A stretch of 39,129 nucleotides of DNA from NCBI GenBank assembly GCA_013151415.1, contig JAADII010000022.1, forward strand, positions 1 through 39,129, read 5' to 3'. Under the pieces are notes generated by a model that was not told the DNA's origin, did no database searches, and was given only the letters and a program-made list of their open reading frames with translations. The DNA is from Chloroflexota bacterium. Its GTDB lineage: Bacteria > Chloroflexota > Anaerolineae > J102. The position numbers and the translations under genes are program-made. Of this stretch, positions 2,491-36,400 are shown piece after piece. Position 1 is the stretch's first letter. The number at the start of each line of letters is the position of its first letter.

Positions 2491-2560
2491 AACACAAATG
2501 GGGAGAAACACGAATAGGGCTTTTCAAAGTTTCCCATTTGTGTTCTCCCCTATTTGTGTT
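2491..2560. repeat. Large imperfect inverted repeat with word-repeat arms
   Basis: The left arm (2491-2519, beginning AACACAAATGGGGAG) is nearly the reverse complement of the right arm (2533-2560). They are separated by a 13-base loop rich in T and A. Each arm contains the same word twice in degenerate form (ACACAAAT, then ACACGAAT), so the arms are both inverted and internally direct repeats. The element lies between the stop of the 1037-residue gene and the start of the 711-residue gene. It could act as an intercistronic RNA hairpin or a terminator, although no clean U tract follows on the minus strand. Confidence 0.75.
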
Positions 2561-2601
2561 CATGGCTGTTGGCTCATGCTAAAATCCGCCAGAAGGCCGG
2601 T

Positions 2602-5600
2602 TCAAGGCTCCATCCCCTGGAAAGCGCTGCTTCCCGGTGATTGACCGAGCAGGAGAGGGAAGTTGAGTCGGTGTCTGAATTCATATGCGCCCATGTCGGT
2701 GATCGCGTCGCCATCGCCGTTCCCATCGAAAGGACGGGAGAGACCGTCCAGATCGTGATCGGGCGCACTCTGGTTCGTCCCTGCATCAATGGCCGGAGAA
2801 CCGGCGCGGAGACGGTAGTCGCCCTGGGTTGGGTTCACAAACATGGGATCGGCCGAGATGTTGCCCTCGCCGGCGGGCGCGCCGTCCTCTACATCCGAAT
2901 AGGTCATGGTGAAATCACCACCGTTGGCTGCCACGATGTCCTCACCTTCTTCTTCCCAGAGAATGCTGTTGAGGATGGTCCCGTGACTCTGGTTGAGCAG
3001 GATCCCGCCATGTGGTCCGTTGTCGGCCAGGGTGACGTTGATCAGCGTCATGGACGCATTATTGGCATGGATGGCCGGACGACCGGAGTTACCGGCCACC
3101 AGCGTGTTCATCATGGTAAAGGATGCGTCACCCACGCGCACCGCGCCGGCCCCACCACCGACCGAGTTGTCGACAATCACGGAATCTTCGATAACCGGCG
3201 ACGCGCCCTCACCGATGAGCAAGCCGCCGCCACCCCACTCATCCGGCCCCTGGGCGCGATTGCCGCGAATGATGCAGGCTCGGATGTGAGGAGACGCGCC
3301 CCTGATGGTAATGCCGCCACCATCTTGCATGACGTCTCCGCCAGTGATGGTGAATCCGTCCAGCAATGATTCACCGCTCTCAGGCTCGAAACGCACCACA
3401 GGCTCGCCTCCTTGTCCTGGGTCGCCGGGCGTGAGCACCGGATTGTTCTCCGATTTGGTCCAGGCGACGCCATCGGGTGAGGTCGCGTACCCGATCTGAC
3501 CGTTGCTCGAGTACCACATCTTATATTTGCCATCGTAGAGCACCGCGTGGTTTCCTATGCTGCCTTCATCCCATTGGCCATCTTCGGGTGACAACACCGG
3601 ATTGTGGGCGGTGTCTTTCGTCCAATGGACGCCATCATCCGAGGTCGCGTAGCCGATGCTGCGACGGCCATCGTTCGTGCGGCCTGTATACCACATCTTG
3701 AACACGCCGTCCTTCAACATGACCGCCGGGTCCAGCACCCAAAGCCCATCCCAGGCGCCGGCATCGCCCGGCGTAAGCACGGGCTCTGTGAGGACGCGCG
3801 TCCAGTTGATGCCGTTTGTCGACGTAACGACGCCGATCTGCACCTGAACTCCATCCATTCCCACATTTACACCTTCGTAGTACATCCAGTATTGACCGTT
3901 TCCATCTCGGATCACCGATGGGTCGCCCACAGCATTGCGATCCCATGTTCCATCCTGATGGGTTGGCTCAAATACCGGCGTTTCCGGATCGACCGTCCAG
4001 GCCACTCCGTCGGTCGAGGTGGCGCGATAGATGGCGCCGTCCTCACGGTTAAACCACATGACATATTGGTTGCCGCCCTCCTTGAGGACTGAGGCTTCGG
4101 TTCCGTCCAGCAAAGGATTCTCATCCGCCTTCGTCCATTGAACGCCGTCCGAACTGGTGGCCAGGCCCACGCTGAATCTTCCGCCCATACCGGAACCCGT
4201 ATACCACATTTGGTATTGACCTCCATCTGTCACTACGGCGGGGCCATAGACGAAACGGCCATCCCAGTCACCGGGAATCGGGCGACTGTTGGAGCCATCG
4301 ATGATGGTTTCGTATTGGGCTGGATCGCGCGTCCAGGTGGCAGCTTCGTAACCACCGGTGAGGGAAACGGGAAGCGAAACGGTCAGGTTTTCGGTGTACG
4401 TTCCTTTTGCCACGCGGATTTCGTCGTCCCATGCGGCCTGGTCGATGGCGTGTTGAATCGTGGCGCAGGGCGATTGCGGATCGCGACAATCGTTGTCCAC
4501 ATCCGAGCCGGTGACGGCCACGTAGCGAGGCCCTGACGGCGGTTCGGCCCGAAAGACATTTCCCACCAGGTCACGCGTGTTGGGAATGTAGTAGAAAACG
4601 GCGATGTCCTGGTTGATCTGCACATCCCATTCGGTCTGGGGGTCCCATTGGCACATGTAGGACGACGAACCATCGGCCGCAGCCGTGGAGTTGACCACCG
4701 GCGCCTGGTCCCAACCGGCTTGCCAGCCACCCCAGGGATGGCATTCCACATCGAGCGCTCCCGCGAACCACGGAGCCTGGATGGCGCCGCTGACGCTGTC
4801 CGTCTCTGTATCCACGACCCCGCCGATGTCGCCCACCCGCACCGTGTTCGTGTAGCCATCGTCGGCGCGGAAATAGACCCAATCTCCAGCCTGAATGTCG
4901 GGATTTTCTGGCGTCCAGTGCTGCGGTTCTGTCTGAAAGCCATCACCTTGCCAGCCGCCGCGAGGCTGCGTATCGACCTGGGCCGTGGCTTTCACATTGT
5001 CCGCGCTGTCGGTGACCGTAATCCAAAAGGTATGGCCGGCTTCGTAGTCCGCGCCCACCCAATCATGACCGTATTGCACGCGCACCCAGGGCGCCGCCAG
5101 GGCGTTTATCACCTGATCGCCATCCTGCGTAATATACTGAATGCCTACCGTTTGATTCAATTCAATGTCCCAAACCCCGTTGAAATCGCATTCGAAACTC
5201 CCGCCGGCGGGGTTCACGTCATCCACTGTGACCGGAGGCGGCAGCTGCTCGATCCAGATATGGCACTCCACCGAGACGAGCGTCGGGCTCAACCACGCGG
5301 CATTGACCACGCCCGTGACTTTGTCCGCCTCGTAATCCACCTGACCGGTGATTTCGCCCACCTTAAGGGTGCGCGTGATGTTTTCGTTCTCCACCGTAAC
5401 CATATCACCCACTTCGATGGGCGGCTCCCACTCGCCGGCCAGGAAATAGCCGCTCTCATCCGCTGCTCCGGTTTTCTCGCCTTTGCCGCTGATGGTGATG
5501 GTTACGGTCGTATTGGCCGCGGCCTCGGTCACTTCCGCCCAATTGTGGGCGTAGTTGACGCCGATTTGAGGGGCGACGCGGGTTCTGGCCTGGACCGGCT

Positions 5601-5715
5601 GTTGCAAACTCGCCAGCAACAGAGCCGCCAGGGCTAGCAGGACGCCAATAGCCATCATCAGTCTGGGCAACCCGCGTCCGGCGTCAAACATGGGTTGGTC
5701 GATTTTCGTTTTCAT
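2602..5715 (-). CDS. Large exported protein: tandem N-terminal domains, beta-helix interrupted by a beta-propeller
   Basis: This is a 1037-residue protein started at ATG 5715 with an AAAGGAGCG ribosome site 6 bases away. It has a signal peptide (hydrophobic core residues 19-37, cleavage near VQA-RT). Residues about 50-215 and 216-385 are two diverged copies of one domain: Y-x-H-x-W entry, GDxVxxxxxxxTxTxxVGxIxGxVD, VECHxW, then WDxxxNQ. Residues about 395-475 open a beta-helix (RYVAVTGSD, CATIQHAID, VAKGTYTENL, IIDGSNSRP). Residues about 478-765 then form a glycosidase-43/68-like propeller with repeated Y-x-M-W-Y-x-G, TS-x-DGVxWT and NPVL units. From about 772 the beta-helix resumes (VVRFEPESG, LLDGFTITGG) and ends in SPAIDAGTNQ and DMGAYEF. 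That ending is typical of choice-of-anchor-Q proteins. Catalytic acids were not identified. A surface or extracellular polysaccharide-related role is an inference from the folds. Confidence 0.75.
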   Translation of the reverse strand: MKTKIDQPMFDAGRGLPRLMMAIGVLLALAALLLASLQQPVQARTRVAPQIGVNYAHNWAEVTEAAANTTVTITISGKGEKTGAADESGYFLAGEWEPPIEVGDMVTVENENITRTLKVGEITGQVDYEADKVTGVVNAAWLSPTLVSVECHIWIEQLPPPVTVDDVNPAGGSFECDFNGVWDIELNQTVGIQYITQDGDQVINALAAPWVRVQYGHDWVGADYEAGHTFWITVTDSADNVKATAQVDTQPRGGWQGDGFQTEPQHWTPENPDIQAGDWVYFRADDGYTNTVRVGDIGGVVDTETDSVSGAIQAPWFAGALDVECHPWGGWQAGWDQAPVVNSTAAADGSSSYMCQWDPQTEWDVQINQDIAVFYYIPNTRDLVGNVFRAEPPSGPRYVAVTGSDVDNDCRDPQSPCATIQHAIDQAAWDDEIRVAKGTYTENLTVSLPVSLTGGYEAATWTRDPAQYETIIDGSNSRPIPGDWDGRFVYGPAVVTDGGQYQMWYTGSGMGGRFSVGLATSSDGVQWTKADENPLLDGTEASVLKEGGNQYVMWFNREDGAIYRATSTDGVAWTVDPETPVFEPTHQDGTWDRNAVGDPSVIRDGNGQYWMYYEGVNVGMDGVQVQIGVVTSTNGINWTRVLTEPVLTPGDAGAWDGLWVLDPAVMLKDGVFKMWYTGRTNDGRRSIGYATSDDGVHWTKDTAHNPVLSPEDGQWDEGSIGNHAVLYDGKYKMWYSSNGQIGYATSPDGVAWTKSENNPVLTPGDPGQGGEPVVRFEPESGESLLDGFTITGGDVMQDGGGITIRGASPHIRACIIRGNRAQGPDEWGGGGLLIGEGASPVIEDSVIVDNSVGGGAGAVRVGDASFTMMNTLVAGNSGRPAIHANNASMTLINVTLADNGPHGGILLNQSHGTILNSILWEEEGEDIVAANGGDFTMTYSDVEDGAPAGEGNISADPMFVNPTQGDYRLRAGSPAIDAGTNQSAPDHDLDGLSRPFDGNGDGDAITDMGAYEFRHRLNFPLLLGQSPGSSAFQGMEP

Positions 5716-6083
5716 GGTTCGCTCCTTTGCATGATATGCGGACCCCGGCGTTTTGCCGCTTTATTGATGCGAATCCTCGCGAATCACACGAAAAGATATT
5801 TAATCGTTTATCTTGTGCGAACCATTCACGTCGGAAAACTGCATTGTCAAGCCGCAACTTCACCTTTCGCCGGACTCCGACCTGTGAGAAAAACCGTTTA
5901 TACCTACCTGCACCAAGTATCGCCCAACTCCCCTGCCCGCGCCTGCCAATCCCTGCCATTTCGCTGCCAATTCTCGACTACGAAAATAGCAGATGAGCGG
6001 ATCTCGTCCATTTTGCCACGCGATCTCTGCGTGCTCGATTATTCAGTTAACCCCTGCCAGAAAAGGATTTCTGTCGTCAAAAA
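5716..6083. other. 368-base gap without a recognisable gene
   Basis: This stretch separates the start of the 1037-residue secreted protein from the PIN-domain remnant. It is richer in A and T than the flanking genes. It must hold the promoter of the 2602-5715 gene, and a TTGACA hexamer occurs on the minus strand near 5845-5850. I could not find a convincing -10 partner at normal spacing. Short open frames on the plus strand show no codon bias, ribosome site or family resemblance. Confidence 0.5.
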
Positions 6084-6323
6084 TTAGGAAACATAATCGA
6101 AAGGATTTTCTGTAGAAAAGCCTTCAACGCGTGCAGCACTAAGCAGTGTCTTGTCACTGCTCACAAAGACCAGCCGGCGTCCAATCAAATCCAACACGTT
6201 TGCCTCACGTATGGCCACGGCCAACTGAACAGCATCATAAGCTTTAAGGGGATGGCGTCGAGTGAGTTCAGCGGCCAGAAAATAGTCATCCTGTCCCATC
6301 TTTGGAGGAGATAATGATATCAC
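6084..6323 (-). pseudogene. Remnant of a PIN-domain (VapC-like) toxin, N-terminal half missing
   Basis: The readable C-terminal part, about 75 residues, contains the second half of a PIN ribonuclease domain: AAELTRRHPLKAYDAVQLAVA, then RRLVFVSSDKTLLSAARVEGF and STENP. Complete relatives are about 130-140 residues. They begin with a D-T/S-S motif carrying the first catalytic aspartate and carry a second acidic residue near position 40, and both are absent here. The remaining acidic positions (the YDA and SSD aspartates) are present. The only available start is GTG 6323, which lies inside the upstream antitoxin frame and has no good ribosome site. The likely history is deletion of the first 70-80 codons, fusing the remnant to the end of the antitoxin gene. 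An active nuclease is therefore unlikely. Confidence 0.65.
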
Positions 6324-6549
6324 TAGCCAGAGGCCCCTCAGACAGGTTGGCTAATTCTGATGTGATGGCCTCCTGTTCCTTTTTCGATAACGATTTCCAA
6401 CGAGATGCATAAGCACGCGCTGAGAGAGGTGGTTCGCTGATATGACCGGTATGCTTCAACCAGGTCACGATGTCTTCATCATTTACTTTTCTGGGCAATA
6501 GGTTCGCGCGAGAGAGAGACCTACCCGGTTGATTTGATTCGATCAACAT
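6286..6549 (-). CDS. Small antitoxin-like protein paired with the PIN remnant
   Basis: An 87-residue protein begins at ATG 6549 (TTG 6546 or TTG 6555 are alternatives, and GGAG lies directly in front of the ATG). It is hydrophilic and helical: RSLSRANLLPRKVNDEDIVTW, then a GHISEPPLSARAYASRW segment, and KKEQEAITSELANLSEG near the end. I recognise no named DNA-binding fold. Its size, its own promoter and its position directly in front of a PIN domain are typical of the antitoxin of a type II pair. Its last residues (SSKDGTG) overlap the PIN remnant frame by 38 bases. That is far more than the usual short overlap and fits a deletion that removed the toxin start. The antitoxin role is inferred from context. 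Confidence 0.55.
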   Translation of the reverse strand: MLIESNQPGRSLSRANLLPRKVNDEDIVTWLKHTGHISEPPLSARAYASRWKSLSKKEQEAITSELANLSEGPLASDIIISSKDGTG

Positions 6550-6559
6550 CTCCAATTGA

Positions 6560-6589
6560 ATACTACTGTAAACTAAGGAGTTGTGTCAA
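6560..6589 (-). promoter_or_regulatory. Candidate sigma-70 promoter of the antitoxin-like gene
   Basis: On the minus strand a perfect TTGACA (-35, 6589-6584) is followed after 18 bases by TAGTAT (-10, 6565-6560, four of six consensus positions). It ends about 11 bases before the ATG at 6549, giving a very short leader. It also lies directly downstream of the ATPase gene stop (6598), which would give the antitoxin gene independent transcription. Confidence 0.5.
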
Positions 6590-6597
6590 TGTTCGGT

Positions 6598-7959
6598 CTA
6601 TTCCTGGGGCTGGAGCTCGCTTTGCTCCAGCGATTCCAACACGGCTGTCAGCGCGTGGATAGCATCCTTGCGCTCGCGATAAAAGGTGCGCTCGGAGAGG
6701 TTGAGCTGCATGAAAATGCGGCGATTGGAATGCCCCTCCACGTATTTATGATGCAAGATGTACCAGCCGCGCCAGCGTTTGTCGGTCTTGCCCGGCCCGC
6801 GGTCATGTCGCAATTGGTTCATGGCCATGAGCAACGCGTGATGCACGGCCTTTCCCCTATCACATCCAACTTGCGCCATGCGCCGACGAACCAGATAATC
6901 CTGCACTGCTCTCAACCGCGTCAACGGACTCTCGGCCAGCCAAACCGTATCCCATAGATGCTCCAATGCAGCTTCCACATCTTCGGCCCGAATTTCGACA
7001 AAGGACGGCGCGGCGGCTTGTGCGCGGACGAACTCGCGGAAGACGCGACTGGCGCACAGATAGTGTTCATACTCGCCCGATGTCTGCCAGGCCGCTCTTT
7101 GCATCCGTTCGCGCGTGATCGCGTCCGCGTGCTCCCAGGCATAGACGAAATGATCCACCGCCTCTTGATGAAAACGCTCTTCCGCCCATGCCAGATCGGG
7201 CGGATCGCGACGTCGGCAGGCCTCCATGAGATAGAAGCAGGCGATCTGCAAGAAGAAGGGATGGAAACCCACCATATCTAATAGCCAGTCGGCATAAAGC
7301 GCCAACGAATATCCTGCACGCGTGGAAGGAACATTGATAAGTTCACGCGCGGCATTCTCATTCAATGTTTTCAACGCAATGATGGCAAAGATGTTGAAAA
7401 AGGGCGAATCCACGATCTCTGTGTGGCATAAATCGGCCAACCGGCGATGAGACGCGACCACCAGACAAAGATGATAATTGGTGGCCATATAACGCAAGAA
7501 ACTAAAAAAGGTGATGTCCAGTTGCTCGTTCCGCGTGAGGCAATCGAACTCGTCTAGCAAGAAAACCACGGTGAACCCCTGCTGGTTCAATTGAAAAATG
7601 GCCTCCTCGAACGCCTCTGGCGAAATGCGCCCCTCAGATAATGTGAAACGACCACCGCTCTGTCGCGAGAGTTGTCGTAGCAGATGGCTTAGCAAAGCGG
7701 AGGGCTCCCGCGCCGCGCTCCCCTGTAGATCAACATAAATGAACAAATAGGATGTGAAGTCGTAACCCGGTATGCGCGCCTGCACCTGTGGCAATCCTGC
7801 GCAATACAAAAGAGAGGATTTGCCAATGCGCCGATCGCCCACAATGGAGACGCTCTGACCATTGGCTAATAGGGCGAACAGCCGGCTCAGCGCACCGGTT
7901 CGCCCAAAAAACATCTGGGGATCGCGCACCGTGCTGCGGTGCGTGTAGGGATTTTGCAT
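6598..7959 (-). CDS. AAA/STAND-like ATPase with C-terminal helix-turn-helix
   Basis: This is a 453-residue protein. Residues 16-49 read MFFGR...VSIVGDRRIGKSS, a Walker A loop in the Orc1/Cdc6-like or archaeal-type ATPase family in which an FxGR box precedes the P-loop. A Walker B VVFLLDEFDCL follows near residue 135, and a sensor-like CLVVASHR near 180. The middle part is helical and resembles the STAND/AAA lid. The last 70 residues (RWRGWYILHHKYVEG, NRRIFMQLNLSERTFYRER) look like a helix-turn-helix of the sigma-region-4 type, suggesting DNA binding. It follows the Uma2 gene by 8 bases with no clear ribosome site of its own, so translation is probably coupled. Similar ATPases are abundant in Chloroflexota and mostly uncharacterised. 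The target and any signalling role are unknown. Confidence 0.7.
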   Translation of the reverse strand: MQNPYTHRSTVRDPQMFFGRTGALSRLFALLANGQSVSIVGDRRIGKSSLLYCAGLPQVQARIPGYDFTSYLFIYVDLQGSAAREPSALLSHLLRQLSRQSGGRFTLSEGRISPEAFEEAIFQLNQQGFTVVFLLDEFDCLTRNEQLDITFFSFLRYMATNYHLCLVVASHRRLADLCHTEIVDSPFFNIFAIIALKTLNENAARELINVPSTRAGYSLALYADWLLDMVGFHPFFLQIACFYLMEACRRRDPPDLAWAEERFHQEAVDHFVYAWEHADAITRERMQRAAWQTSGEYEHYLCASRVFREFVRAQAAAPSFVEIRAEDVEAALEHLWDTVWLAESPLTRLRAVQDYLVRRRMAQVGCDRGKAVHHALLMAMNQLRHDRGPGKTDKRWRGWYILHHKYVEGHSNRRIFMQLNLSERTFYRERKDAIHALTAVLESLEQSELQPQE

Positions 7960-7967
7960 GGAAGATG

Positions 7968-8597
7968 TTATGGCATAATCTCGTCCACATCAATGACAAA
8001 GCCCTTGAGCGCCTGGGAACGAGCCTGTTCTCCCGGTCCCCATTGTCCCAGCAAGGCGTAAGTTTGCCCTTTCAGGCCGTACACCTCTACGGTGCGAGCG
8101 TTGGCGTCGAGCAACCAAAGCTCCTGCACCCCGGTCTCCTCATATAGAGGCGTCTTCACCCGACGGTCGCGCCACCAGGTTCGAGGCGAAAGGATCTCCA
8201 CCACCAGAGCGGGCGCGCCTTCGATGCCCCGGTCGCTGACGGTGGCTGAACCTCCCTTGGCCACAAAAACAACATCGGGCTGCACAGGCGTCTCCTGACC
8301 GGGGAGATACACATCGATAGGGGCATAGAACACTTCGCCAAGATCATGCTCTTTGGCAAATCGCCACATGGCAAACTCCAAATTTCTCGAAGCCCGCTGG
8401 TGATCGGGCGAGGGGGCAGGGACCATGTAAAGCACTCCTTTGATGACTTCGTATTGCCAACCATCATCGGGCAGCTTGAGCCAATCTTCATATGTCCACT
8501 GTCCTTGAGGCGGGGGCCAATCATTCACCATTGCAGGCTCAACCACCGGGGTGCGTTCAGGCGTCTGCGCTTTTTCCTTGACCAGAACAGGGTTCAT
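7968..8597 (-). CDS. Uma2-family (DUF820) putative endonuclease
   Basis: This is a 209-residue protein of the Uma2 family, which has a restriction-endonuclease-like fold. Visible landmarks are YEDWLKLPDDGWQYEVIKGVL (the acidic E-V-I-x-G entry), SPDHQRASRNL, QPDVVFV (catalytic-type aspartate) and APALVVEILSPRT with the V-E-I-LSP signature. After these come KTPLYEETGVQELWLLD and VEVYGL. All expected acidic residues and the following K are present, so it looks intact. It has a strong promoter at 8658-8686 and a GGGAG ribosome site before ATG 8597, and it probably heads a two-gene unit with the ATPase. Uma2 genes occur in many copies in Cyanobacteria and Chloroflexota. Their biological role is not established. 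Confidence 0.85.
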   Translation of the reverse strand: MNPVLVKEKAQTPERTPVVEPAMVNDWPPPQGQWTYEDWLKLPDDGWQYEVIKGVLYMVPAPSPDHQRASRNLEFAMWRFAKEHDLGEVFYAPIDVYLPGQETPVQPDVVFVAKGGSATVSDRGIEGAPALVVEILSPRTWWRDRRVKTPLYEETGVQELWLLDANARTVEVYGLKGQTYALLGQWGPGEQARSQALKGFVIDVDEIMP

Positions 8598-8657
8598 GAG
8601 AAAACTCCCACGTCTGCAGAAAATAGGGGATCCGTTTCGAATACGCGCTTCGAATTC

Positions 8658-8686
8658 ATTATAGATTGTGAGGCGCGTGGCGTCAA
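8658..8686 (-). promoter_or_regulatory. Near-consensus promoter of the Uma2-ATPase unit
   Basis: The minus strand reads TTGACG (8686-8681), a 17-base spacer, then perfect TATAAT (8663-8658). The predicted start of transcription is near 8651, about 50 bases ahead of the Uma2 ATG. The -35 hexamer lies inside the left stem of the hairpin at 8672-8709. Confidence 0.75.
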
Positions 8687-8709
8687 GACATTTTCTTGAG
8701 CCACGCGCC
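8672..8709. terminator. Strong hairpin between the SPFH gene and the Uma2 promoter
   Basis: GGCGCGTGGC (8672-8681) pairs perfectly with GCCACGCGCC (8700-8709). Inside, TCAAGA (8683-8688) pairs with TCTTGA (8694-8699) around a 5-base loop. This is a 16-base-pair stem with a single bulged G. It lies about 30 bases after the SPFH stop codon and could end that transcript. A U tract is lacking, so intrinsic termination is not certain. It also overlaps the -35 of the next promoter. Confidence 0.6.
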
Positions 8710-8740
8710 GGTTAAGCCGCATATTTTTCTCCTGATCGGC

Positions 8741-9688
8741 TTACGCCGATGACGCCGAACCGGATGTTTCATCACCGTCACCGGAATCGCTATCCCGCAG
8801 CAGGTCGCCGATGCCGCCTAAGGTCGCGAGGATGCCCGTGGCCTCGTATGGCAGGTATATCTTGGAAGCCTGACCGTCGGCCACCACCTTCAGAGCTTCC
8901 AGGTATTGAATAGCGATGAGCTTGTCATCTGGATTTGCGTCCTTGATGGCTGAAAACACTTTGTTAATGGCTTCGGCCTGACCGATGGCCTCGGTTTCCA
9001 ACTTATAGCGTTGCGCGTCGGCCACGCGGCGCACGGCTTCGGCCTGGCCCTCGGCTTCCAGGATGGTGGACTGGCGCATGCCCTCGGCCTGCAAAATCTG
9101 GGCCTGACGCAAGCCCTCGGCTTCGAGGATATTGGCGCGCTTCTCGCGCTCGGCTTTCATCTGGCGATGCATGGCCTGGGTTACATCTGCGGGCGGGTCG
9201 ATGCGCTTGATCTCGACTCGCACAATGCGCACGCCCCATTTGTCGGTGGCGTCGTCAAGCACCTCGCGCAATTTGGCGTTGATGATGTCGCGAGAGGTGA
9301 GCGCCTGGTCCAGCTCCATCTCGCCGATGACATTGCGCAGATTGGTTTGGGCCAGCTTGGTGGCCGCGTCGAAAAAGTTGGCGACATTGTAGATCAATTT
9401 GATGGGATCGGTGGCCTCGTAGAAGACGACCGCATCCACTGTCACCACCACATTGTCGCGGGTGATCACTTCTTGCGGCGGGACGTCCACCACTTGCTCG
9501 CGCATATCCACTTTGCGCATCTTGTCGATAAAAGGCACGATGAGCGTTAGGCCCGGCTCGGCCGTTCGATGATATCGCCCCAAACGCTCGATCACGCCCT
9601 TTTCGTATGGCCCAACAATACGGATGGACACCGCGGCCACGATGAGCACGAATACGGCCAGGAACAGAAAGAAAATCAGCACTTCCAT
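8741..9688 (-). CDS. SPFH/Band 7 (stomatin/paraslipin-type) membrane protein
   Basis: This is a 315-residue protein. Residues 1-27 form a single membrane anchor. Residues about 28-190 are the SPFH domain: [23 protein letters not shown], a [21 protein letters not shown] segment, [12 protein letters not shown], then a [14 protein letters not shown] segment. The C-terminal part (185-250) is a coiled coil of repeated [17 protein letters not shown]-type units typical of the family. A GGAGGT ribosome site stands 5 bases before ATG 9688. Stomatins oligomerise at the membrane and organise protein and lipid microdomains. In bacteria they are commonly encoded next to an NfeD protein, as here (10056-10499, upstream on the same strand), and the pair is sometimes cleaved by a membrane protease. 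The gap to nfeD is unusually long because of inserted repeats. Confidence 0.9.
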
Positions 9689-10055
9689 GTCAGCACCTCC
9701 GAGGGCGTTTGAGATTGATTAACGGTCAATAGCCAACAGTCAACAATCAAGGGTGGACTTCCTGAAAAAAAGCTATTCCCCCGCTGAGTTCGCTGAGCGC
9801 GCAGAGAAAAAGTGGGCGTTTTAAGAGAAAAACATGGCTCAATTCACCTCATTTTTCTCCCTGCGTCCTCCGCGGGCTCGGCGGTGAACTTTTTTTCAGT
9901 GAAGCCAACAGGCAACGAGCAACGGCCGGCAAGTGGCAGGGGCAGGGGGTAGGGGGCGAGGAGCAAGTGCAAGGAGCAAGGAGCAGGTGGCAAGTGGCAA
10001 GTGATGACAAAACTTTGAACCTTGAACCAGAAATCTTGAACTTTGAACTCCAGCA
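9689..10055. repeat. 367-base gap packed with several families of degenerate word repeats
   Basis: No gene is visible. From left to right the gap holds the following. CAA-x-x-x-CAA words occupy 9725-9750 (CAACAGTCAACAATCAA). A large imperfect inverted repeat spans 9762-9899. More GCAAC words lie at 9908-9925. A run of GGCAAGT and GGAGCAAGG words lies at 9928-10002. TTGAACYTTGAAC words fill 10013-10050. The runs differ in sequence but share the same style: 6-9 base words repeated with small changes. They separate two genes, SPFH and nfeD, that usually lie side by side. Confidence 0.75.
9762..9899. repeat. Large imperfect inverted repeat with CTGAAAAAAAG ends
   Basis: The left arm (about 9762-9812) begins CTGAAAAAAAG and continues through CCGCTGAGTTCGCTGAG to CAGAGAAAAA. 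The reverse complement of the right arm (9852-9899) begins with the same CTGAAAAAAAG and continues CCGCCGAGCCCGCGGAG to AGGGAGAAAAA. The loop is about 39 bases. The arms contain the repeated word CGC-x-GAG. It has the same architecture as the elements at 2491-2560, 31006-31120 and 34029-34100. Confidence 0.7.
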
Positions 10056-10499: not shown

Positions 10500-10573
10500 G
10501 AGTATCGAGCCTCCGTGGCGCTAAAGTGAAGCGTGGATGGCGGAAAGGAGATGCGGGCCGGACGATTGATTGT

Positions 10574-10582
10574 ATTGTACCA
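10574..10582 (-). promoter_or_regulatory. Candidate extended -10 element ahead of nfeD
   Basis: The minus strand reads TGGTACAAT, with TACAAT at 10579-10574 preceded by the TGn extension. No good -35 is present at 17-18 bases. The leader to the NfeD ATG would be about 70 bases. Confidence 0.35.
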
Positions 10583-10731
10583 GAAGTTTGTTCAAACACC
10601 AGACCAAACGCTGACAAGAGGCTGACATTTCACGGGTTTGTTTTCTCCAGCCGATATCGGGTACCATAAAGCGTCGTAAACGTTCACCAAATTTGCATCA
10701 TTTGCGTCTGACGCAACTTTGACGATAAAAC

Positions 10732-11670: not shown

Positions 11671-11688
11671 GCGAAACGATTTGGCAAA

Positions 11689-12333: not shown

Positions 12334-12354
12334 GGTTCATCTCCTGCAACGGTA

Positions 12355-13512: not shown

Positions 13513-13593
13513 GGTAGTCCTTTCTCAGTAACGCGAGCATCCGTCCTCTGTGGATGAAAGATGACAGCATGGCGGTGCGTTTCGGATCGTTCA

Positions 13594-18990: not shown

Positions 18991-19067
18991 ATCACGCATC
19001 CTTGAGGGTAGTGTGCGCTTCGCCCACGAAGCGCACACTACAAGACCTCAGGCGATCGAAATCGCGT
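18991..19067. promoter_or_regulatory. Intercistronic stem-loop between the binding-protein and permease genes
   Basis: GTAGTGTGCGCTTCG (19008-19022) and CGAAGCGCACACTAC (19027-19041) form a perfect 15-base-pair stem with a CCCA loop. Outer elements can extend it: CTTGAGG pairs imperfectly with CCTCAGG, and ATCACGC near 18991 pairs with GCGTGAT near 19061. In sugar ABC operons such hairpins usually protect the binding-protein mRNA 3' end or attenuate downstream expression. A REP-type repeat origin is also possible. Confidence 0.75.
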
Positions 19068-25703: not shown

Positions 25704-25891
25704 AAGTTATCTCCGGAGAAAAAGGCTGCGTTGCGCAAGATGACAATGCCGCACTCGAGGCGATGGACCGGCGTCTTCGCCGTGGAGGGATGATTCGCGC
25801 ACCATCAATTATACCCCACCGCGTGGGGCGACCCAAGTTGCGAAATGCCAGGCATCGGTTCTCCAGCTTTTTTGTTGCCTTCGCGCAGGGG

Positions 25892-28645: not shown

Positions 28646-29625
28646 AGATGGCTGCTTTGGATCTCCTTCTCGTATGCAAAAAGTGCGGGAACGCCGCCTG
28701 TATGCCAGAATAGCACGCGTCCTTTTAGCGCGCCCAAACGAACCAGATCGATGAGCCCGGCCAGCGCCCGCCCGGTGTAGACCGGGTCCACCAACAAGCC
28801 CTCGCTACGAGCGAGCGAAAAGATGGCTTCTCGTTCTGCTTCGCCCACCATGCCGTAACCCTCGCCGAGATAGGCGTCGTGCATAATAACCGGATGCTGA
28901 CGCGCGGTTTCCAACAAGGCTGCGGTGGCTTGGGTCAAGGCTTCGGTCACTTCGGCCAGGTGCGGAACTTTATGGTCCACCGAAATGCCATGGAGCTCGC
29001 CTGTCCAACCCGCTTCGCCCGCGCCCACGCTCAGCCCCGCTTGGGTGCCGCCTGAGCTGGTGGCAAACACCACAGCGTTAAATTCCATGCCCAGTTTTTC
29101 GGCCTGCTGGGCCATTTCTCGCCAGGCGAACGCATAGCCGGCTGCACCCAATGGCGTTGACCCGCCCAGCGGAATGGCGTAAGGCCGCCGGCCCTGCTCT
29201 CGCAATTCGGCGAGCACTTGCTCCATGAGCATGGTGGCGTCTGAAGAGCCAGACCAATGCAACCGGGCTCCGAAAAGGCGGTCGAGTATGAGGTTTCCGC
29301 CCGGCCGCTCCTCTGGCTCGCCGCGCAACACCAGATGACAGCCCAGCCCCGCGAAAGCCGCGGCCGCGGCTGTTTGCCGGCAATGATTGGATTGCGCCGC
29401 TCCGGTGGTGACCAAATCGCTGGCTCCCTGGGCCAATGCATCGGCGACCAACAATTCAAGCTTGCGCATCTTGTTGCCGCCCAGTCCGCGAGCGGTGAGA
29501 TCATCGCGTTTGATCCAGACCTCGACGTCCTTGCCTAACCTGCGGGAAAATCTGGGCAAGGGATGAAGAGGCGTTGGCAATTGAGTCAATTGGAAGAGGG
29601 GCGGGAGGCGAAACGCTTCGTTCAT
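28642..29625 (-). CDS. D-cysteine desulfhydrase / ACC-deaminase-family PLP enzyme
   Basis: This 327-residue protein starts at ATG 29625 (MNEAFRLPPLF); sequence further upstream in this frame has no family resemblance. It is a fold-type II PLP enzyme: LTQLPTPLHPLPRFSRRLG, VWIKRDDLTARGLGGNKMRKLE with the Schiff-base lysine in GNKMRK, TGAAQSNHCRQTAAAA with the S-N-H loop, then FATSSGGTQAGL for PLP phosphate. Relatives remove NH3 and H2S from D-cysteine or NH3 from 1-aminocyclopropane-1-carboxylate. The RDDLTARGLGGNK pattern favours the D-cysteine desulfhydrase branch, but the two cannot be separated by reading alone. It precedes and overlaps the P-type ATPase gene, and a promoter candidate lies at 29656-29684. 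No strong ribosome site is visible. Confidence 0.8.
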   Translation of the reverse strand: MNEAFRLPPLFQLTQLPTPLHPLPRFSRRLGKDVEVWIKRDDLTARGLGGNKMRKLELLVADALAQGASDLVTTGAAQSNHCRQTAAAAAFAGLGCHLVLRGEPEERPGGNLILDRLFGARLHWSGSSDATMLMEQVLAELREQGRRPYAIPLGGSTPLGAAGYAFAWREMAQQAEKLGMEFNAVVFATSSGGTQAGLSVGAGEAGWTGELHGISVDHKVPHLAEVTEALTQATAALLETARQHPVIMHDAYLGEGYGMVGEAEREAIFSLARSEGLLVDPVYTGRALAGLIDLVRLGALKGRVLFWHTGGVPALFAYEKEIQSSHL

Positions 29626-29655
29626 TGATTCTTGGCATCCAGATAGATGCAGACA

Positions 29656-29684
29656 AATGTAGCATAAGTGCTTCTCGCGAGCAA
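29656..29684 (-). promoter_or_regulatory. Candidate promoter of the desulfhydrase-ATPase unit
   Basis: On the minus strand TTGCTC (29684-29679) is followed by a 17-base spacer and TACATT (29661-29656), four of six matches in each box. It overlaps no other gene and gives a leader of about 20-25 bases. Confidence 0.45.
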
Positions 29685-29695
29685 GCGGAGCGTGT

Positions 29696-29724
29696 TTGTC
29701 AGGTTCGATGATCTCATATACAAT
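29696..29724 (+). promoter_or_regulatory. Strong promoter of the plus-strand MFS gene
   Basis: TTGTCA (29696-29701), a 17-base spacer and TACAAT (29719-29724) match the sigma-70 consensus at five of six positions each. It is divergent from the desulfhydrase promoter only 12 bases away, leaving room for shared regulation. The leader to the ATG at 29805 is about 75 bases. Confidence 0.7.
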
Positions 29725-29804
29725 GAGGCTCTTCGGCATTCGTTTTTTTCTCACCTTGTAGGCGCTTTTGCTGAACATTTCGTTTCTCCTGCACGGAGTT
29801 GGTC

Positions 29805-31016
29805 ATGAACTGGCGCTACACATTCACCGTTGGTTTTGGGTTTTTTGGCATCTCCATCATATGGCCTCTTTTCAATTCCTTGATCCCGCCCATGTTGCAA
29901 GATTTGGGCCAGACTGCGGGAATAATCGGCTTCATCCTCACCTGGGATAATATCATCAACATGTTTGTCCAGCCTTGGGTGGGCAGCAAAAGCGACCGCA
30001 CCTGGACGCGTTTTGGACGGCGCAAGCCGTGGCTCATGGTGGGCGCGCCATTGGCCGCGATCTTTTTCATTCTGGTTCCTTTTGTGCGCGAAAACTTCGT
30101 GCTCATCGCGCTGGCCATTTTGGGAACCAACATCGGCATGGCCCTGTTCCGCTCGCCCACCATCGCCTATCTGGGCGATCTCTTTCCCTCTGAACAGCGC
30201 AGCAAGGCCAATGGCGTGATCAATTTCATGGGCGGCCTGGGCGCGGCCATCGCTCTGTTCACGGGCGGCGCGCTTTACAAGATCGGCGTTCCCTTGCCCT
30301 TCATCGTTGGTTCGGCGGTCATGCTTTTAGCCATCGGCATTGTGCTCCTCTTCGTACGCGAGCCAAAACCCGAAGAAGTGGAGCAAAGCGGGGAAGAAGA
30401 CCCGCCGGGGCTCATCGAGAACTTGCGCGAGGTGTGGGCTCACGAAGACCGCAGCGGGTTGATGATCCTGTTGGCCATTTTCGCCTGGTTCGTGGGTTGG
30501 AATGCGATGGAGGCCTTTTTCACGCTCTACGCGCGTAATGTTTTGGGCATTGAACCGGGAACTGCCACGCAAATGCTGACCGCATTCGCGGCCATGCTCA
30601 TCCTTTTCGCCATTCCCAGCGGTCTTATCGCCACCCGGTTTGGTCGCAAGCGCACCATTCTTGTGGGGCTTAGCGGCATGTTGGTCGGGCTGTTGGTGGG
30701 TTTTGGCGTGCGCGACGCCACGGTTCTGGTGGGGTTGTTGGCCGTGATGGGCGCGTTTTGGGCCTTGGTCAACATCAACTCCCTGCCCATCGTCTATGAC
30801 GTGGGTGGCGATGAGCGCATCGGCGCGTACACCGGTCTCTATTACTTTGCGTCCTCCTTCGCGGCCATCACCGGACCCATCCTGGCCGGCGTGCTCATCG
30901 ACTTCACCAACTACGCGATCGTTTGGCTATTTAGCGCTGTTTTCATGGCCCTGGCCATCTACGCCATGATCCGCCTGCCCGATAAACAGCAGAACGCTTT
31001 GGATATTGGATATTAG
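29805..31016 (+). CDS. MFS transporter of the sugar-symporter (GPH/SLC45-like) type
   Basis: This 403-residue protein is started at ATG 29805, 6 bases after GGAG; the in-frame TTG two codons earlier overlaps that site. It has 12 predicted helices. The first half contains QPWVGSKSDRTWTRFGRRKPW, a motif-A variant (D-R-x-W-x-R-x-G-R-R-K-P) typical of the glycoside-pentoside-hexuronide symporters and SLC45-like sucrose transporters. GNIG-like ALFRSPTIAYLGDLFPSEQRSKANG follows. The second half begins after an acidic loop (EEVEQSGEEDPPG). A cation-coupled saccharide or hexuronide substrate is likely from the motif. Its last codons (ALDIGY, stop) are written in the word repeat that fills the following gap. 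Confidence 0.85.
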   Translation: MNWRYTFTVGFGFFGISIIWPLFNSLIPPMLQDLGQTAGIIGFILTWDNIINMFVQPWVGSKSDRTWTRFGRRKPWLMVGAPLAAIFFILVPFVRENFVLIALAILGTNIGMALFRSPTIAYLGDLFPSEQRSKANGVINFMGGLGAAIALFTGGALYKIGVPLPFIVGSAVMLLAIGIVLLFVREPKPEEVEQSGEEDPPGLIENLREVWAHEDRSGLMILLAIFAWFVGWNAMEAFFTLYARNVLGIEPGTATQMLTAFAAMLILFAIPSGLIATRFGRKRTILVGLSGMLVGLLVGFGVRDATVLVGLLAVMGAFWALVNINSLPIVYDVGGDERIGAYTGLYYFASSFAAITGPILAGVLIDFTNYAIVWLFSAVFMALAIYAMIRLPDKQQNALDIGY

Positions 31017-31120
31017 GTATTTGGATATTAGATATTGGGTATTAGGTAAATAGGTATTGTGCGTTCTCCGCTACGGAGTCATCCCTCCCCAATACCCAGT
31101 ATCCCAATACCCAATACCCC
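31006..31120. repeat. Inverted word repeat at the end of the MFS gene
   Basis: The left part (31001-31058) is made of TTGGATATTAGG-like words repeated four to five times. The right part (31089-31120) is their reverse complement (CCCAATACCCAATACCCC). About 30 bases of each arm align as an imperfect stem. The loop contains its own perfect small hairpin CTCCG-CTA-CGGAG (31066-31078). The stop codon of the transporter (31014-31016) lies inside the first words. Confidence 0.75.
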
Positions 31121-31154
31121 AGCACCCATTCCCACTTCTCCAGCCAATTTTCTC

Positions 31155-32066
31155 ATGACCCGATCCCGTCTTCTCACCTCCCTTTGGGGCTTGCTTTTCG
31201 TCTTGTTCGGCGTTGTCGGCCTTCTGTTCACTTTTGGCGCGCTGGACGATTACAAGCTCATCCTCAGTTACGCGGTCAGCATCACCCTGGCCCTGGCCGG
31301 GTTGGTTTATTTGAGCCTGATGCTCTATCAGAAAAACCGCTGGGATTACGCCATCCCAGGCTTCAGTTTGCTGGCTTCTGGCCGGAGTCGTGTTCCTGCC
31401 CACGGTGCAAACGATTCGCCCGGAGCTATTGGGCGCGCTCTTTCTCGCGGGCATGGTTTTGGGTTTTCTGATTATTTTCCTGGCGGATCGCGTCGAGCAT
31501 TGGTGGGCTTTGCTTCAGGCCACAACCTTGCTCACCATCGGCGTCGTGGGCCTACTTCTCATCAATCTCTCTCGAAATCTGGAGACCGCGTTCCCTGAAT
31601 ATCTCATTGGCGCTGCGCTTCTGGGGGGATTCGCGTTGAGTTATTTTATTTCTTCGTCTACCTGTTCACCGGCGAGCGCCGGCGTTTTCAGTGGGCTTTG
31701 CTCATGGCCGTGGTTCTGGGCGCGTTCGCCATGCTCCTGGTGATGCAAAGCGCAGGCGGCGGCATTGTGGTGCAATTGTGGCCGGTGGTTTTGCTCATCG
31801 TCGGCGTGTTTTTGTTGGCGCGGGCCATCTTTAGCCGCGGGCCGACCGTTCCCTCCCAACCGGTTCCCATTGATGTCATCGAGCCGGAGGAGGTGGAGGC
31901 GGACGCAGATGTCGATGCAGAACCAGCGCAGATCATCCCACCCGAACAACCCGTACCCTCGCCCTCGCCCACGCCCGCGGCCATTCCCGCCGAGCCGCAA
32001 CCCCTCCCGCCCCAGCCGGACGCGACAGAAGAGGATGAGACGGCGGAACGATGGGACGATGGATAA
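31155..32066 (+). pseudogene. Membrane protein gene with two compensating frameshifts
   Basis: Read with corrections, this is a protein of about 303 residues. It begins at ATG 31155 (MTRSRLLTSLWGLLFVLFG), with eight or so hydrophobic helices and a proline/acid-rich tail (VIEPEEVEADADVDAE, then PPEQPVPSPSPTP). The frame changes near 31376-31384: the first frame ends in PGFSLLA, and the second frame continues AGVVFLPTVQTIRPELLG. It returns to the first frame near 31650: the second frame ends in ALSYFI, and the first continues FVYLFTGERRRFQWALLMAV. Neither stretch has a stop codon until after the shift, and helices continue through both. The changes are therefore recent, or are base-calling errors in a shallow assembly; the second falls in a T-rich run. 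I recognise no named family. No ribosome site is seen. Confidence 0.6.
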
Positions 32067-32142
32067 ATTCGAAATCGATGAGTTTTTTTGTTGACAGCCA
32101 GTCGCGGATCACGGTTGTTTGTCACCTGTTGTCCGATTTTCC

Positions 32143-32946
32143 ATGTCCACTGAACTGACACTGTCTTTGGTGCAAATGGACATCCGGCTGGGCGAGCCGG
32201 ACGCAAATCTGGAGCGCGGGCATGAGTTCGTGCGCCAGAGCGCCGAGCGCGGCTCGGACCTGGTCGTCTTTCCCGAACTATGGACCACCGGATATGACTT
32301 GCCGCGTGCGGCCGAGTTGGCCGACCCCGCGCCCGATGGCCGCACCCCAAGCGCGCTCAAGGGTTGGGCCATGGCCTACAACCTCTGGATCACCGGCTCG
32401 TTTCTATTACGCGAAGCCAACGGGGTCACCAACGCGGCCTTCTTTTTCGGGCCGGATGGCCAGCTCCTGGGCCCCTATGCCAAAATCCACCGCTTTGGAC
32501 TTATGGCCGAAGATCAGTGGCTGGAAGCCGGAGACCGCCCCGGTCTTTTCGACTTGCCCTGGGGCCGAACCGGTCTCGCCATCTGCTACGATTTGCGTTT
32601 TCCCGAACTTTTCCGCGGCTACGCGCTCGCCGGCGCGCGTCTCATTGTGTTGCCCAGCGAATGGCCCCATCCCCGCCTAGCCCATTGGCGCACGCTCATC
32701 CGCGCTCGGGCCATCGAAAACCAATGCTTCCTGGCCGCGGTCAATCGCGTGGGTAGCGACCGCGACAACACATTTTGCGGCCATTCCGCGCTCATCGACC
32801 CCTGGGGAGAGACCCTCGTCGAGGCTGGCGAGACCGAAATCCTGCTCACCGCGACCATCGACCTGGCCCAGGCCGACGAAGTCCGCCAACGCATCCCCGT
32901 CCTCGCCGACCGTCGGCCGGAGTGTTATGCAATGATTCACGATTAA
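32143..32946 (+). CDS. Carbon-nitrogen hydrolase (nitrilase superfamily, omega-amidase-like)
   Basis: This 267-residue protein starts at ATG 32143 (MSTELTLSLVQMD). The catalytic triad of the nitrilase superfamily is complete: glutamate in VVFPELWTTGYDL, lysine in YAKIHRFGLMAEDQW, cysteine in GLAICYDLRFPELFR. The conserved ARAIENQCFLAAVNRVG and GHSALIDPWGE segments follow. Length and motifs fit the single-domain amidase branch (YafV/omega-amidase, Nit2-like), which hydrolyses alpha-keto-amides or dicarboxylic acid amides. They do not fit true nitrilases. It follows the frameshifted membrane gene, and the SMP-30 gene begins 29 bases downstream, so the last two are probably cotranscribed. The exact amide is unknown. 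Confidence 0.88.
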   Translation: MSTELTLSLVQMDIRLGEPDANLERGHEFVRQSAERGSDLVVFPELWTTGYDLPRAAELADPAPDGRTPSALKGWAMAYNLWITGSFLLREANGVTNAAFFFGPDGQLLGPYAKIHRFGLMAEDQWLEAGDRPGLFDLPWGRTGLAICYDLRFPELFRGYALAGARLIVLPSEWPHPRLAHWRTLIRARAIENQCFLAAVNRVGSDRDNTFCGHSALIDPWGETLVEAGETEILLTATIDLAQADEVRQRIPVLADRRPECYAMIHD

Positions 32947-32975
32947 AAATCACCGATTCAGAAAGGAGCCTTCCC

Positions 32976-33938
32976 ATGACCGACATCAAAAACTTCACCC
33001 TCGATCTTTCCGAGCTGGAATTCGTGCACAGCGGATTGGCCCGGCCCGAAAGCGTCCTCGCGGAGCCGGACGGCACATTGTGGACATCCGACAATCGCGG
33101 CTCGGTCACCCGCATCGATCCCGATGGAACCATGCAAACCATTGGAACCATCGGCGGCGAGACCAACGGCCTGGCCATGGACGCGCAGGGCAATATCTAC
33201 ATCGCCCATATCGGCGACGGCAACATCTACAAGATGGACCGCCAGGGCAACCACGAGATCATCCTTAGCGAGCTCGACGGCAAGCCCCTGGGCGCGGCCA
33301 ATTATGTGTTCATCGACAGCAAAGATCGTTTGTGGATTTCCATCTCCACCCGCGCGCTGCCCTGGTTCGTGGCCGCGGCCGCGCCTCGACCTGATGGTTA
33401 CATTATTCTCATGGATGAAAAGGGCCCTCGCATTGTCGCGGACGGCATCTACTTCACCAACGAGATCAAAATGGACGCGGATGAGAAATACCTCTATGTG
33501 GCCGAGACGATGGGTCGCCGCGTCCTGCGCTATCCGGTGAACGAAGACGGAAGCCTGGGAGAGCAGGAAGTGTTTGGGCCGGACGACCTGGGCGAGGGCG
33601 CGTATGTGGACGGCATCACGCTGGACGCGGAGGGCAATGTTTGGGTTGTGTTGGTCATCCGCAATGGCCTGGGCGTCATCACGCCGGATGGCGATTATCA
33701 CGTCGTCTTCGAAGACGTGAACCAGCCCGCGTTGGAGCAGGCCGTGGCCCTGGTCGAGCAGAACGCGCTCACGCCCGAAGCCATGTTCGCCTGCGTTGGC
33801 CCCACCCTCCAATTTCCGGCCAGCCTCACCTTCGCCGGTCCCGATCTGCGCGACGTTTACATGGGTTCGCTGGCCATGCCGCACCTGGTCAAATTCCGTT
33901 CGCCTGTTGCCGGCCTGCCCATGCGCCACTGGCGTTGA
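32976..33938 (+). CDS. SMP-30/gluconolactonase/LRE-type six-bladed propeller hydrolase
   Basis: This 320-residue protein starts at ATG 32976, with AAAGGAG about 7 bases ahead. Repeated blade strands are visible: PDGTLWTSDNRGSVTRIDPDG, QGNIYIAHIGDGNIYKMDRQG, KDRLWISIS, DEKYLYVAETMGRRVLRYPV, EGNVWVVLVIRNGLGVITPDG. The four expected metal ligands are in place: E in ARPESVLAEPDG, N in GAANYVFID, N in YFTNEIKMD, D in YVDGITLDAEG. The family opens sugar lactones (gluconolactone, galactonolactone) or lactone-like xenobiotics. It is closest to the strictosidine-synthase-like/LRE branch. Together with the aldonate and KDG genes at 11689-21653 it could supply aldonates, but it lies 11 kb away on the other strand and may be unrelated. 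Confidence 0.85.
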   Translation: MTDIKNFTLDLSELEFVHSGLARPESVLAEPDGTLWTSDNRGSVTRIDPDGTMQTIGTIGGETNGLAMDAQGNIYIAHIGDGNIYKMDRQGNHEIILSELDGKPLGAANYVFIDSKDRLWISISTRALPWFVAAAAPRPDGYIILMDEKGPRIVADGIYFTNEIKMDADEKYLYVAETMGRRVLRYPVNEDGSLGEQEVFGPDDLGEGAYVDGITLDAEGNVWVVLVIRNGLGVITPDGDYHVVFEDVNQPALEQAVALVEQNALTPEAMFACVGPTLQFPASLTFAGPDLRDVYMGSLAMPHLVKFRSPVAGLPMRHWR

Positions 33939-34028
33939 TGACTCGACCTCCTTGACGCGCTTCGCTGCCGGTGATAGTATCGTACTGGAGTCTGGCGAGA
34001 ATCACTTCGGTCGCTTTTCACACCTATT

Positions 34029-34100
34029 TTGACACGAATTGAGCGAATTTGACGAATTTTTTCTTGCTTTATTCGTGAAACTCGCGTTCATTCGTGTCAA
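34029..34100. repeat. Large imperfect inverted repeat ahead of dnaX
   Basis: The left arm (34029-34057, TTGACACGAATTGAGCGAAT...) and the reverse complement of the right arm (34071-34100, TTGACACGAATGAACGCGAG...) match over about 30 bases with scattered differences and share perfect TTGACACGAAT ends. The loop is 13 bases and T-rich. Within each arm the word CGAAT recurs two or three times. It has the same design as the element at 2491-2560, including the ACACGAAT word. Confidence 0.75.
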
Positions 34101-34136
34101 GATCAAAAAAACGTCAGTATCCAGTATCGTATTGCG

Positions 34137-34194
34137 CATCGTCGCCCTATCGTCCATCGTCCCATCGTCCTATCGTCCATCGCCCTATCGTCCC
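34137..34194 (+). repeat. ATCGTC word array directly in front of dnaX
   Basis: Degenerate 7-8 base units (CATCGTC, CTATCGTC, CCATCGTC, CATCGCC) are repeated about seven times in one orientation and end 8 bases before the dnaX ATG at 34202. The ribosome-binding region is therefore made of this array, and no Shine-Dalgarno sequence is present. The array is open in the dnaX frame, but it has no resemblance to DnaX and is not part of the protein. Confidence 0.75.
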
Positions 34195-34201
34195 CTTCTC
34201 C

Positions 34202-35827
<1,626 letters not shown>

Positions 35828-35849
35828 AACGCGACCGAGTTTTTTCTTT

Positions 35850-35891
35850 CATCGTCCATCGTCCATCGTCCATCGTCCATCGTCTATCGTC
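35850..35891 (+). repeat. Six tandem heptamers (CATCGTC) between dnaX and ybaB
   Basis: Five perfect copies of CATCGTC (35850-35884) are followed by one TATCGTC (35885-35891). It is the cleanest copy of the word seen also before dnaX and recR. It begins 23 bases after the dnaX stop and ends 17 bases before the ybaB ATG. Confidence 0.85.
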
Positions 35892-35908
35892 CAACATAAG
35901 GTAAGCCT

Positions 35909-36289
35909 ATGGCCAAGAAAAAACGCCCCCCTCGCGGTTATCGCTCCCCCGGCTCGCGCGGCCCCCGCGGCCCCAAAGGCGGCGGCGCGGATATGCTGGC
36001 GCAAGTGCAACAGCTTCAGCAGCAGATGGAGGCCGCTCAGGCCGCGTTGGCCGAAGAAACCGTGGAGGCCGACGTGGGCGGCGGCGTGGTGCGCGTCGTC
36101 GCCACCGGTCAGCAGAAGATACAGGCTATTTACATTGAACCCGAAGTCATTGATCCTGATGACGCGGAAATGCTTCAGGATCTGATCGTCGCCGCGGTGA
36201 ACAAAGCCCTGGACGAAGCCGCGGCCCTGGCCAACGAGCGGTTGGGCGGTCTCACCGCCGGCCTCGGCCTCCCACCGGGGCTGTTTTGA
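35909..36289 (+). CDS. ybaB: YbaB/EbfC-family nucleoid-associated protein
   Basis: This 126-residue protein has a basic, glycine/proline/arginine-rich N-terminal tail (MAKKKRPPRGYRSPGSRGPR, residues 1-26) ahead of the YbaB fold. MLAQVQQLQQQMEAAQAALAEETVEADVGGG... is the long helix and strand 1, then VRVVATGQQKIQAIYIEPEVI and DAEMLQDLIVAAVNKALDEA. Dimers bind DNA. The gene lies between dnaX and recR as in most bacteria. The tail is longer and more basic than usual and may add non-specific DNA binding. TAAGG about 9 bases before ATG 35909 serves as a weak ribosome site. Confidence 0.92.
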   Translation: MAKKKRPPRGYRSPGSRGPRGPKGGGADMLAQVQQLQQQMEAAQAALAEETVEADVGGGVVRVVATGQQKIQAIYIEPEVIDPDDAEMLQDLIVAAVNKALDEAAALANERLGGLTAGLGLPPGLF

Positions 36290-36348
36290 GGCGGTGGTTC
36301 TGCATTCGTTTAATCCGAGTCGCGTGAAATTGAACGCATCTTCGTTAT

Positions 36349-36400
36349 CCAATATCAGACGATAAGACGATAGGACGATGGGACGAAAGGGCCATCGTCC
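36349..36400. repeat. ATCGTC words in both orientations forming a hairpin before recR
   Basis: GACGATAAGACGATAGGACGATGG runs are the reverse complement of the word used before dnaX and ybaB. GGACGATGG (36373-36381) pairs perfectly with CCATCGTCC (36392-36400) around a 10-base loop, ending 9 bases before the recR ATG. The stem could influence recR translation. Confidence 0.75.

What the first reader, a model, noticed from the sequence alone, without database searches (positions are those of the whole stretch)
2491..36400. A shared architecture of intergenic hairpins built from degenerate repeated words
At least five gaps hold large imperfect inverted repeats whose arms are themselves tandem runs of 6-9 base words: 2491-2560 (ACACAAAT), 9762-9899 (CGCnGAG with A-runs), 31006-31120 (GGATATTAG), 34029-34100 (ACACGAAT/GCGAAT) and 36373-36400 (GGACGAT). 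The words differ, but the design is the same: diverged direct repeats within each arm, and a loop of roughly 10-40 bases. Two sites share ACACGAAT. Simple slippage explains direct words but not their reverse-complement partners, which suggests a specific generating mechanism or selection for RNA/DNA structure. Similar words occur in other environmental genomes as far as I remember, but I know of no named element class.
Basis: seen in the sequence. Interest (0 to 1): 0.75.

Follow-up and report, generated by a model that had tools for sequence, protein, structure and literature searches.

The report
Miniature transposons with word-repeat hairpins
At least two of the five word-repeat hairpins between this bacterium's genes are copies of very small mobile DNA elements, and across related genomes the same element ends carry different hairpin words while one hairpin word turns up inside different element ends.

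Summary
The hairpins are real. In 621.8 kb of this Chloroflexi genome, 82 of 369 gaps hold a strong inverted repeat (shuffles: mean 3.15). Of the long ones 31 of 50 have tandem-word arms, of the short terminator-like ones 2 of 32.

They are not one design. Site 34029-34100 lies in a 140-bp MITE (33985-34124) with a perfect 7-bp target duplication. Site 9762-9899 is a 152-bp MITE whose family has 6-bp duplications (exact in 14 of 22 copies). So transposition copies both arms at once. Site 2491-2560 has one other full-length copy; 31006-31120 and 36373-36400 are word arrays without demonstrated ends.

The surprise is modularity: the same ends carry different word hairpins in different genomes, and GACGAT words sit inside three different sets of ends. 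Words mostly face inward (279 sites against 39). Arms covary between sub-families but decay independently among copies in this genome, so a host function is not supported. Nearest known: MITEs, eukaryotic Foldback elements, cyanobacterial and Geobacter word arrays. No transposase was found. New variant of a known kind.

The parts
33985..34124 (+).
   Evidence: 24 matches, full and partial, in G000; ends and copies aligned; coordinates checked
33978..33984 (.). Left copy of the 7-bp target-site duplication TATCGTA
   Evidence: Exact duplicate on both sides
34125..34131 (.). Right copy of the 7-bp target-site duplication TATCGTA
   Evidence: Exact duplicate on both sides
9755..9906 (+).
   Evidence: 27 matches in G000, 15 of them 85-100% identical over at least 145 of 154 query columns; sharp ends; 6-bp target duplications in the family, not exact at this copy (AAGGGT / AACAGG)
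9715..9754 (.). Left part of a degenerate ~7-base array (CAACAGT/CAACAAT) in which the D element sits
   Evidence: Tandem score p 0.005 for the left flank
9907..10050 (.). Right-hand arrays of 7-base words (CAACGAG, GCAAGTG, AGGAGCA, AACTTTG)
   Evidence: Tandem Repeats Finder rows 9935-10049; right flank p 0.025
2479..2569 (.). Palindromic repeat with ACACAAAT/ACACGAAT and GGGGAGAA; one other full-length copy in the genome (88%)
   Evidence: Own-genome search: G000:C21:40580-40671 plus a 30-base fragment; hairpin score 18.5, 0 of 100 shuffles; no target duplication seen by eye
31002..31128 (.). Class C: inverted arrays of GGTATTGG/GGATATT and CCAATACC; element ends not demonstrated; loops of class C copies not clearly homologous
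   Evidence: Hairpin 31017-31117 score 15; 8 inward and 0 outward class C gaps in the sample, 5 more with one orientation; alignment
34137..34193 (.). Single-orientation array of ATCGTCC words next to the A element
   Evidence: Tandem Repeats Finder; pattern '<<<<<<'
35850..35893 (.). Single-orientation array CATCGTC x6 between dnaX and ybaB
   Evidence: Tandem Repeats Finder score 81
36358..36400 (.).
   Evidence: Score 9, 11 of 100 shuffles reach it

Best explanation
The word-hairpins with demonstrable ends are copies of several families of non-autonomous miniature transposons (MITEs), each made of conserved outer ends plus an inner hairpin whose arms are short, degenerate tandem words facing inward. 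A transposase supplied from elsewhere moves the whole palindrome, which is why a gap acquires words and their reverse complements at once. After insertion the copies decay, and single arms gain or lose words by slippage. Alongside them the genome has single-orientation arrays of the same or similar 7-base words that arise by slippage and sometimes receive the MITEs. Shown: dispersed homologous copies, sharp ends, target duplications of 6 bp (D), 7 bp (A) and 8 bp (one F1 copy), same ends with different words, one word in different ends. Inferred: a transposase in trans, and that hairpin pairing is needed by, or regenerated in, the mobile copies. Unresolved: the origin of class C, of the repeat at 2479-2569 and of the array at 36358-36400, and how the first word palindrome of each family formed.
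For: Copies: 27 D and 24 A matches in G000. Target duplications with cross-pair control: D exact 6 bp in 19 of 28 rows, which is 16 of 24 distinct copies once both-strand duplicates are merged; two of these (L099, L310) share only the ends with D, leaving 14 of 22 (8 of 15 in G000); cross pairs 13 of 756. A exact 7 bp in 9 of 19 rows (4 rows are non-family anchor hits), cross pairs 0 of 342. F1 8 bp in one copy (L096). Polarity: GACGAT...ATCGTC 279 inward against 39 outward in G000, 260 against 58 in G003. Same ends, different hairpins: family A, family D (CGCTGAG/CGCAGAG in G000, CACAGAG/CACGGAG in G009, CGCAGAG/CGCTGAG in G004), superfamily IV with words GGACGAT, GGAGACC, AGACCAACAT and chimeras. 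One word, different ends: GACGAT in IV, in F1 mixed with AGACCA, and in a G003 element with ends CTAAACTGA[AC]GTCA. One-arm duplications in F1 copies L094 and L147. No pair-keeping excess among G000 copies of D and A.
Against: No transposase was tied to any of the ends: the ends examined in G025 lie 145-151 bp apart, and G000 has no Y1 transposase match. The D copy in the window lacks an exact target duplication, as do 8 of 22 D copies. Superfamily IV has no inverted ends and no random target duplication; its mobility rests on dispersal, TGCTT-like bases at the right junction and head-to-tail tandems (the constant TGCTT on the left is part of the search pattern; among copies found by blastn it is 8 of 10). 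With the word set I chose for class D, the gaps counted show 2 outward and 0 inward junctions. Class C and two other reader sites have no demonstrated element ends.
Confidence: 0.85

Rival explanations
1. The hairpins are made in place at each gap: slippage expands a word, and fold-back template switching (palindrome correction) writes its reverse complement into the other arm.
For: Single-orientation arrays of the same words exist; class C loops are not clearly homologous; arms of family A sub-families changed together at the same pairs; one-arm duplications exist.
Against: For D, A, F1 and superfamily IV the loops and outer ends are homologous between copies, and D, A and one F1 copy carry target duplications. 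Inward polarity is strong for classes A, B, C and F, whereas in-place creation would be expected to give both orders.
Confidence: 0.15
2. They are host regulatory or terminator structures selected for RNA or DNA folding, or arrays of protein-binding sites as proposed for Geobacter metallireducens.
For: Strong predicted hairpins; paired columns are less substituted than unpaired ones (0.043 against 0.074 in D, 0.086 against 0.141 in A, 0.045 against 0.160 in IV-B); IV-B shows slightly more pair-keeping changes than shuffles (5 against 2.0, maximum 5; broken pairs 28 against 33.2, minimum 29).
Against: No pair-keeping excess in D and A; the same gaps in relatives hold other words, another repeat or none; long hairpins occur in all four gap orientations.
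Confidence: 0.08
3. They are REP elements or other repeats moved by RAYT/IS200-like Y1 transposases.
For: Superfamily IV has TGCTT-like bases at both junctions, a second GC-rich hairpin and head-to-tail tandems, like ssDNA-type elements; 16 of 21 genomes searched have a Y1 gene; a family A copy lies about 175 bp upstream of a Y1 gene in G008; one of 30 Y1 loci, L195, has a match to the IV right-end motif.
Against: G000 itself has no Y1 match; none of 30 Y1 loci carries the superfamily IV left end at up to one mismatch; D and A carry target duplications and inverted ends, unlike that class; elements are about 120-240 bp rather than 20-40.
Confidence: 0.15

Closest known systems
Bacterial MITEs (NEMIS, RUP, Bcr1, ERIC and the like; list in PMC3733652, passages read)
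   Same: 70-300 bp, no coding capacity, inverted ends, dispersed copies; target duplications recalled as a general MITE feature
   Different: Here the body is a hairpin of degenerate tandem words; ends and words combine in several ways; no source transposon found
Eukaryotic Foldback elements (Drosophila FB recalled; Tm1 of root-knot nematodes, PMC3169594, passages read)
   Same: Composite inverted arms with a variable number of internally redundant short motifs, with target duplications
   Different: Bacterial, much smaller, 6/7/8-bp duplications (Tm1 9 bp). One full-text search for foldback terms with bacteria listed no bacterial foldback element in its 12 rows of 153
Cyanobacterial heptamer repeats: STRR (recalled) and the Nostoc tRNA-Leu intron P6b stem (PMC4476775, passages read); small dispersed repeats inserted in STRRs recalled from Elhai 2008, not held
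   Same: Two sides of a stem built from complementary 7-base words, with one of two word classes replacing the other; small elements beside heptamer arrays
   Different: There within an intron stem; here in dispersed intergenic elements with target duplications
Geobacter metallireducens multicopy sites of tandem octa/heptanucleotides on opposite strands (PMC2700814, passages read)
   Same: Pairs of tandem-word arrays in opposite orientation, many copies
   Different: Interpreted there as possible IHF/HU binding sites; element ends and target duplications are not mentioned in the passages I read
TAACTGA direct repeats of Beggiatoaceae, Cyanobacteria, Bacteroidetes (PMC4679880, abstract and section list read)
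   Same: Intergenic 7-base word arrays with patchy distribution
   Different: Almost always one orientation (169 direct sets, one indirect)
REP/REPIN with GTAG or CGTC tags (PMC3733652, abstract, CGTC section and passages read)
   Same: Dispersed palindromes, often paired; CGTC occurs in the reverse complement of the GACGAT word
   Different: REPs are 20-40 bp; CGTC REPs have 8-9 bp stems and a terminal unpaired tag

Membership tests
MITE | Dispersed copies with sharp common ends | tested here: met
   D and A alignments
MITE | Terminal inverted repeats | tested here: met
   A: CTGGA...TCCAG; D: GGATTTCCTGAAAAAAG / GGCTTCACTGAAAAAAG; the G003 element CTAAACTGA[AC]GTCA. Not met for superfamily IV
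MITE | Target-site duplication of fixed length | tested here: met
   D 6 bp, A 7 bp with cross-pair control; F1 8 bp in one copy; not resolved for the G003 element or the repeat at 2479-2569
MITE | Autonomous partner with the same ends | tested here: inconclusive
   None seen in the loci examined; assemblies are fragmented
Foldback element | Inverted arms composed of tandem short repeats of variable number | tested here: met
   31 of 50 long inverted repeats; word number varies between copies
Foldback element | Descent from the eukaryotic FB/Mutator transposons | not testable with these tools
   No transposase to compare; only the architecture is compared
REP/RAYT system | 20-40 bp palindrome with terminal unpaired GTAG or CGTC tag | tested here: not met
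   Elements of about 120-240 bp with other ends
REP/RAYT system | RAYT gene in the genome flanked by the element | tested here: not met
   No PF01797 match in G000; none of 30 Y1 loci of relatives has the IV left end, one (L195) has a right-end motif match
IS200/IS605-derived element (superfamily IV only) | Subterminal hairpins, no inverted ends, fixed short target motif | tested here: inconclusive
   TGCTT-like bases at both junctions, GC hairpin, head-to-tail tandems; no transposase tied to it; the defining features are recalled
STRR-type arrays | Single-orientation degenerate heptamer arrays in gaps | tested here: met
   Window 34137-34193 and 35850-35893, and other gaps; not the same thing as the MITEs

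The most novel reading that the evidence does not exclude
Bacteria have a general foldback-like class of elements in which short-word hairpins are independent modules: they pass between unrelated transposon ends and between genomes, and the word itself is rewritten in both arms in step, so the hairpin and not the ends is the unit that persists. The Nostoc intron stems and the Geobacter paired arrays would be other instances.
Probability: 0.35. Interest if true: 0.75.

Novelty: new variant of a known kind. Interest (0 to 1): 0.55.

Why it matters
If right, an unnamed feature of environmental genomes (inverted arrays of 6-9 base words in gaps) gets a mechanism: it moves. It also warns against reading such arrays as regulatory sites from copy number alone. 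The combination of ends and words poses a testable question: whether word hairpins recombine between transposons or are rewritten by template switching.

Tried and rejected
One architecture for all five sites: rejected, because families A and D differ in ends and in target-duplication length, site 36373-36400 is not beyond chance, and site 2491-2560 has no significant tandem words.

RAYT as mobiliser: no Y1 match in G000; none of the 30 Y1 loci fetched carries the superfamily IV left end; one, L195, has a match to the right-end motif.

Autonomous copy of the family A ends: G025 has 18 hits of near-identical ends, but in the two loci where both ends were seen (L372, L377) they lie 145-151 bp apart around a GC-rich hairpin, which leaves no room for a transposase gene. 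The ORFs of these loci were listed, not searched against Pfam.

Host conservation: in 20 loci of relatives with dnaX, ybaB and recR (not all three gaps could be read in each) I saw other words, another repeat, or nothing word-like. In G003 the ybaB-recR gap holds a class C hairpin where G000 has a GACGAT array.

Plasmids: no match to A or D at E 0.001. Rfam at gathering scores: only 16S rRNA at the window end.

A first target-duplication count with loose anchors misplaced boundaries and was replaced. Rows dropped before counts: both strands of four palindromic D copies count once (28 rows to 24 copies), and L099 and L310 are set apart because one search shows they share little beyond the ends; four A rows (L040, L060, L086, L088) are non-family hits. 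In the family A covariation set L156, L188, L360, L361, L372, L373 and L377 were left out because their interior is different, shortened or not of the family; L263 and L267 were not in the list.

The gene caller is my own script, so gap borders are approximate.
Full report
Setting. The window is contig C38 of a 4,520,785-base, 197-contig genome. In the named collection the closest RecR is that of Chloroflexi isolate Bse_26 (82%); the nearest of the 40 relatives searched is G003 (86%), and the same-family relatives are all of other genera. The gaps lie beside ordinary genes: an SPFH (Band 7) and an NfeD protein around 9689-10055, an MFS transporter before 31017, and dnaX, ybaB and recR at 34202-37009.

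Noticed in passing
L334 (G000:C78:31650-32500), units at 170, 297, 422, 541: Four superfamily IV units head to tail, spaced 119-127 bases, as expected if a new copy inserts just after the TGCTT at the end of an older one.
   Followed up: partly
L295 (G008:C79:1-3000): A family A copy (265-370) with 7-bp duplication TTTATAT lies about 175 bases upstream of a Y1 transposase match (545-877); may be chance.
   Followed up: partly
L156 (G004:C133:1-20000): A repeat of about 230 bases beginning TGGTTGACTGACAAATCTTG and ending GTTTTGTCAGTCAATCAG occupies both the gap before dnaX and the gap between dnaX and ybaB.
   Followed up: no
L372, L377 (G025): Family A ends around a GC-rich hairpin with CGGCTTCAGCCG-type arms and no word array; G025 has 18 hits of such ends.
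   Followed up: partly
L225, L237, L240, L246 (G009): D-type elements with CACAGAG/CACGGAG words in both arms instead of CGCTGAG/CGCAGAG; L225, L237 and L240 have exact 6-bp target duplications, L246 does not.
   Followed up: partly
window 8672-8709 and 19008-19041: Short near-perfect hairpins between same-strand genes, terminator-like, without significant tandem words.
   Followed up: no
window 38761-39129: Start of a 16S rRNA gene at the contig end.
   Followed up: no
L300 (G000:C100:31000-32400): A superfamily IV element lies directly beside a diverged ACACGAATT hairpin.
   Followed up: no
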